64,000 nt of DNA from Angustibacter luteus (GTDB lineage Bacteria; Actinomycetota; Actinomycetes; Actinomycetales; Angustibacteraceae). A model generated the notes under the pieces. That model did not search any database and was not told the DNA's origin. It saw only the letters and a list, made by a program, of their open reading frames with translations. Of this stretch, positions 1 through 38,584 are shown piece by piece. Position numbers and translations under genes: made by a program. Location: positions 124,001 through 188,000 of the forward strand of contig NZ_BAABFP010000008.1 in NCBI RefSeq assembly GCF_039541115.1, given 5' to 3'. Every line of letters begins with the position of its first letter. The stretch's first letter is position 1.

Positions 1-1183
1 GCCGGGACAGCGCGGCCGTCACCTCGGGGTCGAGCAGCCGGGCCAGCGCGGGGTGCACGTTCCAGTCGGAGGTCATGGCCCGGTACTCCGCGAGCACCGA
101 GTCCTTGGCCGGGGCCGTCGTCCGGGTGGCGCGGATCATGGCGTTGCGCGGGGTGTGCCGGGAGTCGACGAACTCGACCACGTCGACCCGGTAGCCGACC
201 ATCCGCAGCACCAGGGCGCGCAGCGAGTCGGTGAGGACGTCGGCGAAGCGCTCGCGCAGGATCGGGTGCCGGGCCACCGCGCCGTACGGATTGGGCGCCC
301 CGGGGCCGGCGGCGAGCTGCCGCTGGACGTCGTGGTGGCAGCAGGGCGCGGCGAGGACGACGGCCGACTCCCACCGCTTGGCCCGGGCGAGGGCGTCGTC
401 GGTGGCGGTGTCGCAGGCATGCAGCGCGAGGACCAGCACGGGCGGCTGCCCGCCGAAGGGGTCGGCGTCCCCGATCGCGCCGACCCGGAAGGTGAGGCCA
501 TCGAGACCGGCCTCGGCGGCCAGCCGGGTGTTGCGCTCGACGACGTCCGGGCGGATGTCGATGCCGACGGTCTGCACGTCGCCCAGCCGTTCGGCCAGGA
601 ACCGGTGCGCGGCGAAGGTGAGGTAGGCGTTGCCGCAGCCCAGGTCGACCACCCGGACCGGCCGGTCGGTCGGCAGCTTGTCCAGCGTGGGCTCGAGCAG
701 GCGCAGGAACGCGTCCACCTGCCGGCGCTTGTCGCCGTCCGCGCCGAGCACCCGGAACAGCGGGTCGTCCGGCGAGACCAGCCGCTGGCGGACCCGGTCG
801 TGCGAGCGCACCTCGACGACCCGGCGGCTGGCCGGCGCCCGGTGCACCTGCGCGGCACCCTTCTTGGTGACCCGCAGCTGCACGGTCTCGTCGACGGTCT
901 CGACGTGCCAGTTGCCGAACGGCTCGGCCAGCAGCGCGTCCACGGTGGCCGCGGCGGCGCCGTACGGGGTGTTGCGGGTCGTCGCGGCGCGCCCGTCGTG
1001 CGTGACGACCTGCAGGACGCGGCCGCTCTTCAGGTCGACCGGCCGCAGCTCGGCGCGCGTCACGGACGGGTGCGCGGTGCGGCGGCGGCCGGCCGCGACG
1101 GCCCGGACGAGCTTGTCGGGGTCGAGCAGGGCGGGCCGCAGCTGGGCCAGGGCGTCGTCGAGGTCGAGCACGTCGTCCATCAT
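1..1183 (-). CDS. Class I SAM-dependent methyltransferase (3' end outside window)
   Basis: The protein begins MMDDVLDLDDALAQL and stays open to the window edge, giving 394 visible codons. A Rossmann motif I (VVDLGCGNAYLTF, around residues 177-189) and a later LAAPCCHHDVQRQL segment (around 278-291) mark it as a methyltransferase of the METTL25/Methyltransf_32 kind. The PCCHH segment is known in that family; the substrate is not evident. The N-terminal 170 residues form a separate accessory region. ATG codons at 1183 and 1180 are both possible starts. It is divergent from the ArsR gene, and the 88-base gap between them holds that regulator's operators. Fold confidence is high; function is unassigned. 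Confidence 0.8.
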   Translation of the reverse strand, partial: MMDDVLDLDDALAQLRPALLDPDKLVRAVAAGRRRTAHPSVTRAELRPVDLKSGRVLQVVTHDGRAATTRNTPYGAAAATVDALLAEPFGNWHVETVDETVQLRVTKKGAAQVHRAPASRRVVEVRSHDRVRQRLVSPDDPLFRVLGADGDKRRQVDAFLRLLEPTLDKLPTDRPVRVVDLGCGNAYLTFAAHRFLAERLGDVQTVGIDIRPDVVERNTRLAAEAGLDGLTFRVGAIGDADPFGGQPPVLVLALHACDTATDDALARAKRWESAVVLAAPCCHHDVQRQLAAGPGAPNPYGAVARHPILRERFADVLTDSLRALVLRMVGYRVDVVEFVDSRHTPRNAMIRATRTTAPAKDSVLAEYRAMTSDWNVHPALARLLDPEVTAALSR

Positions 1184-1220: not shown

Positions 1221-1264
1221 CTTTGCAAAGGAGTCTTGGCAAAGAAGTCTTTGCAAAGTAGCTT
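1221..1264 (+). promoter_or_regulatory. Promoter and triple palindromic operator of the ArsR/MFS operon
   Basis: Three 10-base palindromic elements start exactly 14 bases apart: CTTTGCAAAG at 1221, CTTGGCAAAG at 1235 and CTTTGCAAAG at 1249. The middle, imperfect copy contains a -35 candidate TTGGCA (1236-1241). Seventeen bases later comes a -10 candidate TAGCTT (1259-1264), followed by 7 bases and the ATG at 1272. Repressor binding here would cover the promoter, and the transcript would be essentially leaderless. That the adjacent ArsR protein is the ligand is inference. Confidence 0.65.
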
Positions 1265-1271
1265 TGGCACC

Positions 1272-1910
1272 ATGAACGAGACCCCCGACGGCAGCCAGCA
1301 GCCCGAGCCGGCCCAGGACCCCCAGGAGCTGCGGCTGGACGCCCGCACCCTGCGCGGCCTGGCCCACCCGCTGCGGGTGCGCATCCTCGGCATGCTGCGC
1401 CGCGACGGCGCCGCCACCGCGACCGGACTGGCCGAGAAGCTCGGCCAGTCCAGCGCCGCGACCAGCTACCACCTGCGCCAGCTCGCCGAGTACGGCTTCA
1501 TCGTCGAGGTCGAGGAGCTCGGCCAGGGCCGGGAGCGGTACTGGAAGTCGGCCAGCCGGTCGACGACGCTGGACGTCGGCGCCTACGTCACCGACCCCGA
1601 GCTGGCCGCGAACACGGAGACCTACCTGCGGGCCGTCACCCGGATGTCCGCGGACCTGGTGCAGAGCCACCTGGACGAGAAGGTCGCGCTGCCGGGCCAC
1701 TGGCAGTCCGCCGGCACGTTCAACGACATCCGGCTGCGCCTGACCCCCGACCAGGCCGACGAGCTCGCCGAGCGCATGTGGGCGCTGGTCAACGAGTACC
1801 CGCGCGCTGACGAGCTCGCGCCGCCGGTGGACGACACCGACCCGGGCGAGGCCCTGCGCCCCGTCGACGTCCAGCTCAACGTCTTCCCGGTCCCTGGGGA
1901 CGCGCGATGA
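1272..1910 (+). CDS. ArsR-family winged-helix transcriptional regulator
   Basis: A 212-residue cytoplasmic DNA-binding protein. Residues around 25-100 form an ArsR/HTH_5 winged helix: LRGLAHPLRVRILGML, then a recognition region SSAATSYHLRQLAEYGFI and a wing ending GRERYWKSA. The C-terminal half matches the long-form ArsR proteins that often accompany drug exporters; no metal-binding cysteine box is visible, so a metal sensor is unlikely. It overlaps the downstream MFS gene by 4 bases (ATGA), so the two are translationally coupled. It probably represses its own operon through the three palindromes just upstream. The ATG at 1272 is chosen because the -10 box lies 7 bases before it. Confidence 0.9.
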   Translation: MNETPDGSQQPEPAQDPQELRLDARTLRGLAHPLRVRILGMLRRDGAATATGLAEKLGQSSAATSYHLRQLAEYGFIVEVEELGQGRERYWKSASRSTTLDVGAYVTDPELAANTETYLRAVTRMSADLVQSHLDEKVALPGHWQSAGTFNDIRLRLTPDQADELAERMWALVNEYPRADELAPPVDDTDPGEALRPVDVQLNVFPVPGDAR

Positions 1911-3244
1911 GCCGGACGACGGCGCCCGCCCGCGCCTCCCTGCGCCCGATGATCGCGCTGCTGACCGCGTACGGCATCTCGCTGGTCGGCACCCGGCTCT
2001 CGATGATCGCGCTGCCGCTCTTCGTGCTGGCCACCACCGGCTCCCCCACCCGCACCGGCTTCGTCGCGATGGCCGAGATGGCGCCGTACGTCCTGGCCCA
2101 GGCACTGTCCGGTCCGGTGACCGACCGGGTCGGGCCACGCCGGATGAGCATCACGTCCGACCTGGTCAGCGTCGTCGTGGTCGGCCTGATCCCGGTGCTG
2201 CACCAGGCCGGGATGCTGCACTTCAGCACCCTGGTCGCGTTGGTCGCGGTAGCCGGTGCGGTCCGTGGGCCGGGCGACAGCGCCAAGTACGTGCTCGCCC
2301 CGGCCGTGGCGAAGGCCGCCGGCCAGCCCAACGAGCGCGTGCTCGGCCTCGAGGACGGGATCGGCCGCGCCGCCACCGTGATCGGGCCGCTCGCCGCCGC
2401 CGCGCTGGTCACCCTGGTCGGCGCACCAACCGCCATCGCGCTGGATGCCGCGACGTTCGCCGTCGCCGCCCTCGTGTTCGTCGTCGCGCTGCGGCCGAGC
2501 GAGGCGAGCGGTGCCGGCAGTGCCGCCGAGGACGCTGCGGACAGCGCCGACCCGTACTTCTCCCGGCTGCGCGCCGGCGCCCGGTTCGTCTGGGACGACG
2601 GCCTGCTGCGCGCCATCGTCGGCATGGTCGCGGTCACCAACATGATCGACGCGGCCATGGCCGGCGTGCTGATCGCCGTCTGGGCCCAGCACCAGGGTGG
2701 CGGCGCCGGGCTGATGGGGGCCACCGCCGCCGTGATGTCGGTCGGGGCCCTGCTGGGCGCCCTGTTCGCGGCGGCCGCCGGGCACCGGCTTCCCCGCCGG
2801 ATGGCCTTCGCCATCGGCTTCTTCGGGATCGGGGCACCCCGTTTCGCCGTGCTCGGCCTGGACGCGCCCCTGTGGCTGGTGTTCGCCGTGCTGTTCGTGG
2901 GCGGCCTGGGCTGCGGGCTGATCAACCCGATCCTCGGCGCCGTGCAGATGGAGCGGGTGCCCGAGCCGATGCGGGCCCGGGTGATGTCCCTGATCAACGC
3001 GGCCTGCTGGTGCCTGATCCCCCTCGGCGGCGTGTTCGGCGGCGTGCTCGCCACGAAGTTCGGCATCAGCACGGCCCTGCTGGTGTGCGGCGCCATCTAC
3101 CTGGTGGCGACCACCCTGCCGCTGGTCCGGCCGGAGTGGGCCCAGCTGAACCGCCCGCCGGCGGCCGTCCCTGAGCACGTCCCGGATGCACTTTCGCCCG
3201 AGATGGCCGATCATGGCGTGACCTTCGACGCGCCCGCTCGTTAG
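1907..3244 (+). CDS. MFS transporter, probable drug/metabolite exporter
   Basis: A 445-residue polytopic inner-membrane protein of the major facilitator superfamily, normal length for 12 transmembrane helices. The loop-2 type motif GPVTDRVGPRRMSI near residue 67 is typical of the fold. A long hydrophobic stretch, GLGCGLINPILGAVQMERVP, and a basic/acidic tail follow. Such pairs (ArsR regulator plus MFS permease) usually export a toxic small molecule using the proton gradient; the substrate cannot be told from sequence. It starts inside the ArsR stop codon and is the last gene of the operon. Confidence 0.88.
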   Translation: MSRTTAPARASLRPMIALLTAYGISLVGTRLSMIALPLFVLATTGSPTRTGFVAMAEMAPYVLAQALSGPVTDRVGPRRMSITSDLVSVVVVGLIPVLHQAGMLHFSTLVALVAVAGAVRGPGDSAKYVLAPAVAKAAGQPNERVLGLEDGIGRAATVIGPLAAAALVTLVGAPTAIALDAATFAVAALVFVVALRPSEASGAGSAAEDAADSADPYFSRLRAGARFVWDDGLLRAIVGMVAVTNMIDAAMAGVLIAVWAQHQGGGAGLMGATAAVMSVGALLGALFAAAAGHRLPRRMAFAIGFFGIGAPRFAVLGLDAPLWLVFAVLFVGGLGCGLINPILGAVQMERVPEPMRARVMSLINAACWCLIPLGGVFGGVLATKFGISTALLVCGAIYLVATTLPLVRPEWAQLNRPPAAVPEHVPDALSPEMADHGVTFDAPAR

Positions 3245-36697: not shown

Positions 36698-37939
36698 CTA
36701 GGCGAGGGGCTGCGGGTGTGTCGGTTCAACCTCGGCAGTTCCGGGCCCGACCCTGAGCCCGGGGACCGGTTCGCGCAGCCGGACGGCGGCGTACAGGGCA
36801 CCCAGCAGGTTGCCGACCGCCATGAACAGCAGCAGCCAGCGGTAGTCGACGACGGCCACCAGGGCCGCCCCGACGAGGATCGACACCAGCTGCGGGCCGC
36901 CGGTGAGGAACTCGAACGCGGTGAACACGCGGCCCTGCACCGGTCCCGGGGTGCGGCGCTGCAGCGCGGTGACGATCGCGACCACGACGATCGGCAACCC
37001 GGCGCCGAGCAGGAACGACCCGGCCGCGACGACGGGCAGCAGGTCGCTGACCGGCAGCAGGCAGCCCACCCCGATGAGCGCGAGCCCGACCGGGACGAGG
37101 CGCAGCTCGCCCACCCTGCTGATCAGCACGGTCACCGCGATGCCTCCCAGCACCGCTCCCGCGCCCTGCACAGCGGCCAGCACGCCGATGAAGGAGACCG
37201 GTCGACCCAGGCCCTGGTCGACGACGGCGAAGAACACGCTCTCGCCGAACCCGATCGCCAGCATGCAGATCACCGTGGCCACGACGAGCGCCCGCAGCAC
37301 CGGGTGCGTGAAGAGGTGGCGCGCCCCGGCGGTCGCCTCGTGCAGCACGTGGTGCTCGTGCGGCTCGGGCTTGGGCTCGGCGACCCGCATCAGGGCCAGC
37401 GCGAGCGCCGAGACCAGGAAGGTCGCGGCGTCCAGGACGGCGACCGCGTGCCCGCCGAACCCGGCGAACAGCGCCGCCCCGGTCAGCGGGCCGACCAGCC
37501 GCAGCGCCTCGCGCACCGTCCCGAGGCTGCCGTTGGCCGGGCCCAGCAGCTGCTCGGGCAGCATCGTGGTCAGCAGCGCGGCGCGCGCCGACTGGAACAG
37601 CACCAGGGACGCGCCGTACAGGAAGCCGACGACGTACAGCAGCCACAGGTCGCCCTCGTCGTGGACGAGCAACAGCGTCAGCACGACCGCGGCCGTCGCG
37701 ACGTCCACCGCGATCATCAGGGGGCGCCGGGGCAGCCGGTCGATGACGATCCCGCCGAGCGGGGCGAGCAGCGTCGGCACGATCACGGCGGCCAGCACGG
37801 TGCCGGCCGCCGAGTTCGAACCGGTGAGCTGCTTGGCCCACATGGCCAGGACCAGCAGCATCGCCGTGTCGCCGAACATCGACAGCGTCTGCCCCACCAG
37901 CAGCAGCCGCAGGTTGCGGTCCTTCAGCAGCTCACGCAT
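36698..37939 (-). CDS. MFS transporter coupled to ArsR regulator
   Basis: A 413-residue MFS protein of the MFS_3 kind: LLKDRNLRLLLVGQTLSMFG at the start, APLGGIVIDRLPRRPLMIAV as the loop-2 motif, and FLYGASLVLFQSARAALLTT in the fourth helix region. It overlaps its regulator by 8 bases. The substrate is unknown. It is only distantly similar to the ArsR-linked transporter at 1.9 kb, so the two ArsR/MFS modules look like parallel systems rather than a recent duplication. Confidence 0.88.
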   Translation of the reverse strand: MRELLKDRNLRLLLVGQTLSMFGDTAMLLVLAMWAKQLTGSNSAAGTVLAAVIVPTLLAPLGGIVIDRLPRRPLMIAVDVATAAVVLTLLLVHDEGDLWLLYVVGFLYGASLVLFQSARAALLTTMLPEQLLGPANGSLGTVREALRLVGPLTGAALFAGFGGHAVAVLDAATFLVSALALALMRVAEPKPEPHEHHVLHEATAGARHLFTHPVLRALVVATVICMLAIGFGESVFFAVVDQGLGRPVSFIGVLAAVQGAGAVLGGIAVTVLISRVGELRLVPVGLALIGVGCLLPVSDLLPVVAAGSFLLGAGLPIVVVAIVTALQRRTPGPVQGRVFTAFEFLTGGPQLVSILVGAALVAVVDYRWLLLFMAVGNLLGALYAAVRLREPVPGLRVGPGTAEVEPTHPQPLA

Positions 37940-38549
37940 CGCTGTCGTCCATTCCGGGCTCCAGTCCGTCCGCGCGCGGGAAGCCGAGCGCGGCCAGGTG
38001 CACCAGGCGCGCCCCGGCGGGCCGCTGGGAGGGGTCGGTGATCCGGTCGAGGTAGCGCGACATGACCGCGAGCAGGTCGGCCTGGATCTCGGCGAGCTCG
38101 GCCACGGTCAGGTACGCGTTGCCGGTGAGGTCCAGCGCCGCCTCCGTCCACTGCGGCCCGAACGCCGCGGCGACCTCGGCGTACTCGCGGTGCAGCTCGG
38201 CAGTGCGCTCCCGGAAGCGCTCGCTGAGCGCCGCCCCCGCGGCCCGCGCCGCGACGTCCGAGTCCTGCGCCGGAGACCACTGGTGCGAGACCGACGTCAT
38301 CTGCCACGGCCGGTTGCGCCCGGTGCCACCGGGCGCCTCCTCGACGTACCCGTACTTGGCCAGCTGGCGTAGGTGGAACGAGCAGGACGACGGCGACTCG
38401 CCGACCAGCGCAGCGCACTGGCTCGCGGTCAGCGGGCCGCGCAGGCTGACCAGTTCGAGCAGCTTCAGCCGGACGGGGTGAGCCAGCGCTCGCAGCGTCT
38501 GGGCCCCGGACAGGACGCGCACCGGCTGCGGCTCGCGGGACTCGGGCAT
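37932..38549 (-). CDS. ArsR-family winged-helix transcriptional regulator
   Basis: A 205-residue regulator. The winged helix covers TLRALAHPVRLKLLELVSLR, TASQCAALVGESPSSCSFHL and RQLAKYGYVEEAPGG, followed by a helical effector half with EIQADLLAVMSRYLDRITDP. As with the 1.27-kb protein, no canonical metal-binding CxC box is present. The ATG lies 6 bases after a -10 box within a 28-base palindrome, so autoregulation of this ArsR/MFS operon is likely. Confidence 0.9.
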   Translation of the reverse strand: MPESREPQPVRVLSGAQTLRALAHPVRLKLLELVSLRGPLTASQCAALVGESPSSCSFHLRQLAKYGYVEEAPGGTGRNRPWQMTSVSHQWSPAQDSDVAARAAGAALSERFRERTAELHREYAEVAAAFGPQWTEAALDLTGNAYLTVAELAEIQADLLAVMSRYLDRITDPSQRPAGARLVHLAALGFPRADGLEPGMDDSDA

Positions 38550-38554
38550 GCGTC

Positions 38555-38584
38555 GAAAGTACTCTTTCGAAAGAGTGCTTTCAA
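38555..38584 (-). promoter_or_regulatory. Promoter with palindromic operator of the second ArsR/MFS operon
   Basis: On the minus strand TTGAAA (38584-38579) and TACTTT (38561-38556) are exactly 17 bases apart, a good sigma-A promoter, and the ATG follows 6 bases after the -10. The perfect palindrome ACTCTTTCGAAAGAGT (38561-38576) fills the spacer. Extending it outward gives a 28-base palindrome (38555-38582) with one mismatched pair. It is the probable ArsR binding site. Confidence 0.7.

What the first reader, a model, noticed from the sequence alone, without database searches (positions are those of the whole stretch)
1221..1264. Three phased palindromes embedded in an ArsR/MFS promoter
Three CTTTGCAAAG-type sites are spaced exactly 14 bases apart. 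The imperfect middle one has a G that creates the -35 TTGGCA, and the -10 follows the third site. The architecture suggests cooperative binding that directly covers the promoter, and the degenerate centre is explained by double use of the sequence.
Basis: partly seen in the sequence, partly recalled or inferred. Interest (0 to 1): 0.55.

Follow-up and report, generated by a model that had tools for sequence, protein, structure and literature searches.

The report
Phased repressor sites over efflux promoter
In front of a regulator-plus-exporter gene pair lies a row of repeated DNA sites, set exactly 14 letters apart and built into the gene's on-switch; many related bacteria keep the 14-letter spacing even where the site's own letters have changed, which points to a row of repressor molecules sitting side by side on the switch.

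Summary
The three sites are real: CTTTGCAAAG at 1221 and 1249, CTTGGCAAAG at 1235, exactly 14 bp apart, plus an unreported fourth core, TTGGCA 1264-1269, in register. The spacing is a property of a large actinobacterial group of ~200-residue HTH_20 (ArsR-like) regulators: of 206 non-redundant loci, 140 have at least two TTGCAA-like cores exactly 14 bp apart (shuffles: mean 0.2), and a motif-free test also singles out 14. Some sub-families keep 14 bp with other words (TTTCGAAA, TTCGCGAA, TTGTACAA); one clade uses TGTGCA at 13. Array ends suggest that the unit is not CTTTGCAAAG but the 8-4-8 dyad TTGCAAAG-N4-CTTTGCAA between cores, the geometry published for M. tuberculosis Rv2034; successive dyads overlap by the 6-bp core. 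The promoter is locked to the register: the core supplies the -35, TANNNT starts 6-8 nt after the next core's G (113 of 121), and the start codon follows 6-7 nt later (probably leaderless). Cooperative promoter occlusion by the adjacent regulator is a well-supported model, untested in the laboratory. The G as the maker of the -35 is not supported as a rule (2 of 113 promoters, both in the window's genus; 86 have TTGCAA), but remains possible within that genus.

The parts
1221..1230 (.). palindrome 1, CTTTGCAAAG (core TTGCAA 1223-1228)
1235..1244 (.). palindrome 2, CTTGGCAAAG (one mismatch), contains the -35
1249..1258 (.). palindrome 3, CTTTGCAAAG
1264..1269 (+). fourth core TTGGCA in the same 14-bp register; right half-site of dyad D3
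   Evidence: HMM array of L010 has 4 cores
1223..1242 (+). dyad D1, TTGCAAAG-GAGT-CTTGGCAA, covers the -35
   Evidence: 1 mismatch to TTGCAAAGN4CTTTGCAA
1237..1256 (+). dyad D2, TGGCAAAG-AAGT-CTTTGCAA, lies between -35 and -10
   Evidence: 1 mismatch
1251..1270 (+). dyad D3, TTGCAAAG-TAGC-TTTGGCAC, covers the -10 and ends one base (1271) before ATG
   Evidence: 3 mismatches
1236..1241 (+). -35 hexamer TTGGCA, 17-bp spacer
   Evidence: family position
1259..1264 (+). -10 element TAGCTT (TANNNT), 7 nt before ATG: probable leaderless start
1272..1910 (+). ArsR-like winged-helix regulator, 212 aa, Pfam HTH_20 52.1 bits, no cysteine
1907..3244 (+). MFS transporter, overlapping the regulator gene (probably one operon)
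38553..38582 (-). second array in the window, core TTTCGAAA, same 14-bp spacing, before a paralogous regulator
37932..38549 (-). paralogous HTH_20/HTH_5 regulator, 205 aa
36698..37939 (-). MFS transporter gene overlapping that paralogue
   Evidence: first 200 aa scanned

Best explanation
The array is the autoregulatory operator of the adjacent ArsR-like regulator (1272-1910). Shown by sequence: cores every 14 bp; conserved sequence between the cores and not outside the end cores; -35, -10 and start codon in fixed register with the array. Inferred: each dimer binds an 8-4-8 dyad, TTGCAAAG-N4-CTTTGCAA, one recognition helix per half-site about one helical turn apart; successive dimers sit 14 bp (about 1.33 turns, 120 degrees) apart and share the 6-bp core, so CTTTGCAAAG is the overlap of two dyads. 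In the window D1, D2 and D3 cover the -35, the spacer and the -10 to one base before the start codon, so a filled array excludes RNA polymerase and shuts off regulator and exporter together. A ligand, presumably a substrate of the exporter, would release it; the protein has no cysteine, so the classical ArsR/SmtB metal site is unlikely.
For: Lag 14 wins a motif-free test (lags 8-30, ties shared, rounded) in 69 of 109, 56 of 80 and 18 of 30 upstream regions, against at most 4 at lag 14 in control regions. TTGCAA-like pairs (up to 1 mismatch): 291 at spacing 14, 13 at 13, 1 at 15. 140 of 206 loci have at least 2 cores at 14 (20 base shuffles: mean 0.2, at most 1), 95 have at least 3 (shuffles 0); control region 3 of 205 for both. 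Ends, in 94 of the 95 runs of 3 or more cores: first core has AG on its right in 76 but CT on its left in 4; last core has CT on its left in 83 but AG on its right in 10 (HMM version). TANNNT in register in 113 of 121; TANNNT 5-9 nt before the start in 121 of 150, against 6 of 148, 1 of 145, 0 of 140 and 0 of 132 at shifted positions. Words change with sub-family while 14 bp mostly stays and cluster on the regulator tree (12 changes, shuffled mean 24.8). Rv2034, an ArsR regulator, was footprinted on an 8-4-8 inverted repeat at its own promoter, protected from -30 to +3 on the coding strand (passages of PMC3338718). The genome holds no other copy of the dyad.
Against: No binding or expression data. 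Inner cores mostly lack the left CTT half (CT on the left in 26 of 146, AG on the right in 88 of 146, both in 10), so the upstream repeats are closer to direct repeats, and a simple two-fold dimer would meet one strong and one weak half-site there. In the window itself the first palindrome has an unpaired left half (CTTT 1221-1224). 42 of 206 loci gave no TTGCAAAG array of 28 nt or more; some of them have variant words, 8 of 206 none that I recognised, 3 have CTTCA/TGAAG repeats without 14 bp. Two full palindromes at this spacing are rare: 5 of 396 genomes of the phylum with up to 2 mismatches, window included, while the reversed control pattern also hit 5 of 396. The link between word and recognition helix is confounded with descent.
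Confidence: 0.72

Rival explanations
1. Each CTTTGCAAAG palindrome is bound by one dimer, possibly in a TubR-like way with both recognition helices in one major groove, and the dimers stack along the DNA every 14 bp.
For: The cores stay palindromic in several sub-families whose letters differ (TTGCAA, TTCGAA, TCGCGA, TGTACA). TubR, a winged-helix protein, puts the recognition helices of a dimer into the major groove in an atypical way and binds direct repeats upstream of its own operon (passages of PMC5016525). It explains the direct-repeat character of inner cores. In the window all three reported sites are full or near-full palindromes.
Against: The outer half of the end cores is not conserved. 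24 of 288 inner cores are full CTTTGCAAAG. The published ArsR precedent that I saw is an 8-4-8 dyad.
Confidence: 0.2
2. The array is bound by another, shared regulator and not by the adjacent gene product.
For: I saw no binding data for the family; word sharing across many genera is also what a global factor would show.
Against: The dyad occurs nowhere else in the 4.16-Mb genome; words differ between paralogues in one genome and cluster on the regulator tree; arrays are present at regulator genes where no related MFS gene was found nearby (48 of 121).
Confidence: 0.06
3. Chance or a promoter-sequence by-product: TTGCAA is merely a common -35 and the repetition is accidental.
For: The core does serve as -35.
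Against: A core also lies 14 bp upstream of the -35 core in 100 of 113 promoters, and one lies 14 bp past the core before the -10 in 52 of 113 (HMM arrays); shuffles lack such runs and control regions nearly so.
Confidence: 0.02

Closest known systems
Rv2034 of M. tuberculosis, ArsR-like autorepressor (PMC3338718, passages seen)
   Same: ArsR-like regulator bound at its own promoter next to its start codon; inverted repeat of two 8-bp half-sites with a 4-bp spacer, as in TTGCAAAG-N4-CTTTGCAA; one half-site suffices weakly and two bind better
   Different: one dyad, other letters; no array of overlapping dyads at 14 bp in the passages seen
ArsR/SmtB metal-sensing repressors (SmtB, CadC, CzrA)
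   Same: winged-helix fold (fold matches); autoregulation and efflux genes (recalled)
   Different: window protein has no cysteine, is about twice as long, and scores under the NCBIfam metalloregulator cut-off (45.9 against 55 bits); their operator is recalled as a 12-2-12 repeat
4g6q, Kfla_6221 of Kribbella flavida, function unknown
   Same: best Foldseek match, and of the 50 listed VIA rows the one aligned over most of the model (164 residues, Z 10.6, rmsd 5.5)
   Different: 16-18% identity; its upstream DNA was not looked at
TubR on tubC repeats; omega repressor on its repeats (PMC5016525, passages seen)
   Same: small autoregulators that bind rows of repeats upstream of their operon or promoter and form helical nucleoprotein complexes
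   Different: plasmid partition proteins; omega is ribbon-helix-helix; not claimed as relatives

Membership tests
ArsR-like winged-helix regulators (Pfam HTH_20 / HTH_5) | winged helix-turn-helix domain over the family cut-off | tested here: met
   HTH_20 52.1 bits (cut-off 27), HTH_5 35.1 (cut-off 22); fold matches
ArsR/SmtB metal sensors | cysteine-containing metal site; NCBIfam HTH_metalloreg cut-off | tested here: not met
   no cysteine in the 212 residues; 45.9 bits against a cut-off of 55
Autoregulated ArsR operator | operator overlapping the promoter of the regulator's own gene | tested here: met
   array covers the predicted -35 and -10 and ends one base before the start codon; register kept in 113 of 121 promoters of the set. 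The promoter itself is predicted, not mapped
Autoregulated ArsR operator | direct binding by the regulator | not testable with these tools
   needs gel shift or footprint
8-4-8 dyad of the Rv2034 kind | two 8-bp inverted half-sites with a 4-bp spacer | tested here: met
   three overlapping copies with 1, 1 and 3 mismatches; published geometry
14-bp phased array of HTH_20 regulators (described here) | at least two cores exactly 14 bp apart upstream of the regulator | tested here: met
   window; 140 of 206 loci
TubR/tubC | partner GTPase TubZ and plasmid partition | not tested
   regulator-exporter gene pair on a 622-kb contig; no search for TubZ made

The most novel reading that the evidence does not exclude
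A whole sub-family of ArsR-like regulators across Actinomycetota tiles its own leaderless promoter as a helical row of overlapping dimers, each turned 120 degrees from the last and sharing a 6-bp core. The register (14 bp; 13 bp in one clade) is fixed by the protein-protein contact and outlives changes in the DNA word read by the recognition helix.
Probability: 0.45. Interest if true: 0.65.

Novelty: new variant of a known kind. Interest (0 to 1): 0.52.

Why it matters
It gives a rule for finding the operator of a large regulator group, often beside exporters: look for cores 14 bp apart, the last of them 6-8 nt before a TANNNT next to the start codon (or one more core past it). It offers a natural series in which the spacing is mostly fixed and the word changes, useful for reading the recognition code of the helix and for making orthogonal repressor-operator pairs. 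It also gives a directly testable case of promoter silencing by overlapping, phased dimers.

Tried and rejected
MFS neighbour count: a first tblastn with the window MFS found 65 of 139 downstream, 2 on the other strand, 72 none; an iterated HMM was spoilt because open frames fused regulator and transporter, so it began to match the regulator; I dropped it and use (segments overlapping the regulator left out), which is a lower bound because flanks end at 1.5-2.5 kb and distant MFS genes are missed. A Pfam scan of 10 open frames near 9 loci without MFS hits gave 2 ABC permease components, 3 Lon_C matches, 1 transposase and 4 with no family; the frames were picked largely by hydrophobicity and are not all genes.

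Considered and dropped or lowered: the G as a generally selected -35 base; a regulon of several targets under the same dyad (one search finds only this locus); metal sensing (no cysteine).

Literature: searches for CTTTGCAAAG (29 papers, 20 listed), TTGCAAAG, ArsR with direct repeats, 14-bp, MFS, and HTH_20 (48 papers, 12 listed) listed no paper whose title or abstract start describes this array; most listed papers were not opened. Only open-licence PubMed Central papers were searched, so it may be in print elsewhere. Of the papers cited I saw passages only; PMC7764795 was looked into and gave nothing relevant. The TubR plus ArsR search found nothing; supplied the TubR and leaderless papers.

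Weak points of my own tests: the HMM was trained on the loci it then scores, so I rely on HMM-free counts for the spacing; the register of the -10 uses HMM cores. One search sets are not de-duplicated and hold the window more than once; later counts use 206 of 219 loci after dropping near-copies. Loci were the best-scoring ones, not a random draw: of the listed matches I took 29 new loci it gave and 80 more; the rest were left. In one search the start codon is the first in-frame one after the array, a choice that favours closeness to the array (14 of 164 had none; 28 of 150 had no TANNNT). Helix data are missing for some 751-bp loci (161 used). Word classes are my own regular expressions, and one row (L218) put with TGTGCA reads as a 14-bp array. 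PADLOC matches to Csa3/CasR probably reflect the shared winged helix only.

Full report
What is there. The window lies in a 4.16-Mb genome (organism not named; its relatives are Actinomycetota). Three sites at 1221, 1235 and 1249 are exactly 14 bp apart; shuffles make chance very unlikely. A fourth core, TTGGCA 1264-1269, continues the register up to the start codon. Upstream a methyltransferase gene runs leftward (Methyltransf_32); downstream are a 212-residue HTH_20 regulator and an overlapping MFS gene.

Is the spacing conserved? Yes. The one same-genus relative (54% identical regulator, L011) has CTTTGCAAAG-AAGT-CTTGGCAAAG-GAGT-CTTGGCGAAG before its own start. I then collected upstream regions anchored on the regulator protein, not on the DNA motif: 30 from the order and nearer, 109 from the class and 80 named loci. 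A test that knows no motif, the longest self-match at each lag from 8 to 30, gives lag 14 in 18 of 30, 69 of 109 and 56 of 80 regions (ties shared, rounded), with 28 as a weaker harmonic; control stretches further upstream and inside the gene give 4 or fewer at lag 14. After removing near-copies (206 of 219 kept), 140 of 206 have at least two TTGCAA-like cores exactly 14 bp apart and 95 at least three; base shuffles give 0.2 and 0, the control region 3 of 205 for both. Spacing 14 has 291 pairs, 13 has 13, 15 has 1. Arrays occur outside the class too: in G009 and G075, ranked 'same phylum', and in Solirubrobacter (L187) and an Acidimicrobiales bin (L219) (other classes by recalled taxonomy).

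What is the unit? A cyclic HMM with free entry and exit phases settled on TCTTTGCAAAGAAA and on arrays that begin at TTGCAAAG and end at CTTTGCAA. Counted without the HMM on 94 of 95 runs of three or more cores (one too near an edge): first core, AG on the right 76, CT on the left 4; last core, CT on the left 83, AG on the right 10. The outer halves of the end cores decay as well. So what is conserved lies between cores: TTGCAAAG-N4-CTTTGCAA. That is the 8-4-8 geometry footprinted for the ArsR regulator Rv2034 (CCGTAAGT-4-ACTTACGG; passages of PMC3338718). Against a clean picture, inner cores lean to one side (AG right 88 of 146, CT left 26 of 146), so upstream copies look like direct repeats; the most complete dyad is the one ending at the core just before the -10 (both half-sites exact in 35 of 113, against 6 of 113 for the next one upstream and 5 of 113 for the next one downstream). 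I read this as a strong promoter dyad plus weaker neighbours filled cooperatively (inference).

How it sits on the promoter. TANNNT lies 5-9 nt before the start codon in 121 of 150 loci (6 of 148, 1 of 145, 0 of 140 and 0 of 132 at positions shifted by 40, 60, 80 and 100). In 113 of these 121 it starts 6-8 nt after a core's G: 15 at 6, 88 at 7, 10 at 8. With a 17-bp spacer the commonest -35 is TTGCAA itself (72 of 122; TTTGCA 10, TTGGCA 2). TANNNT was found before 73% of primary starts in M. tuberculosis, where leaderless messages are extensive (passages and title of PMC3898074). So double use of the core as -35 and operator is real and general, but it does not need the window's G: 86 of 113 promoters have plain TTGCAA at that core. 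The G occurs in 9 of 616 cores, at a -35 in 2 of 113 (window and L011) and elsewhere in the other 7. A tuning within the genus is therefore possible.

Same spacing, other words. The window itself holds a second case: a paralogous HTH_20 regulator (37932-38549, minus) followed by an MFS gene, with TTTCGAAA cores 14 bp apart. Across the set, TTCGCGAAG (7 of 7), TTGTACAAG (8 of 9), TTGCGCAA (3 of 3) and TGCAGAG (6 of 8) arrays keep 14 as best of lags 11-16, as do 137 of 156 TTGCAAAG loci, while TGTGCA arrays have 13 in 10 of 11 and the 3 CTTCA/TGAAG loci have neither (ties counted for each lag). Six of the seven TGTGCA rows on the 129-row tree form one clade (support 100/99); all word groups need 12 changes against 24.8 for shuffled labels (some long branches, so deep joins are unsure). 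Recognition-helix positions carry more information on the word than 200 shuffles (161 loci), as expected if this protein reads the site, though descent alone could produce much of that. Of the 18 HTH_20 matches in the genome only these two regulators show the array (one other, L241, scored at lag 14 on a stretch without such cores).

The protein. AlphaFold2 with 28 sequences gives mean pLDDT 87: a winged helix and a longer C-terminal part with helices. Foldseek and VIA place it with ArsR-type proteins; the best full-length match is 4g6q, of unknown function. It has no cysteine.

Verdict. Observation confirmed; interpretation right in its main point (phased sites over the promoter, conserved spacing), not supported as a rule on the role of the G, and probably off by half a period on where the dimer sits. 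I found no description of this array in the searches listed under Tried and rejected.

Noticed in passing
window 38553-38582 (-), genes 37932-38549 and 36698-37939 (-): A second regulator-MFS pair in the same window with its own 14-bp array built on TTTCGAAA; a two-word natural comparison in one genome.
   Followed up: partly
window 1-1183 (-): A leftward methyltransferase gene (Methyltransf_32) starts about 40 bp left of the array; the sequence left of the array in L011 looks similar. Whether the array also controls it is open; I saw no promoter for it by eye.
   Followed up: no
L006 and L007 (G009, G075), about 20 bp upstream of the main array: A separate dyad-like repeat (GCAAAGN4CTTTGC type) beside a gene that appears to run the other way, as if two divergent operators stood back to back.
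   Followed up: no
L017, L018, L036, L052, L068, L181: A clade of regulators whose arrays have a 13-bp register and the word TGTGCA: a natural change of spacing to compare with the protein contacts.
   Followed up: partly
L034, L035, L037: A sister clade with CTTCA/TGAAG repeats that do not keep 14 bp.
   Followed up: no
L110, L121, L137: Some arrays are one long near-perfect palindrome of about 40 bp or more (for example GCAAACATTCATTTGCAAACGACTCTTTGCAAATGAATGTTTGC).
   Followed up: no
L165, L167, L204: In these Streptomyces loci an open frame with a Lon_C match lies nearby on the other strand, and no related MFS gene was found.
   Followed up: no
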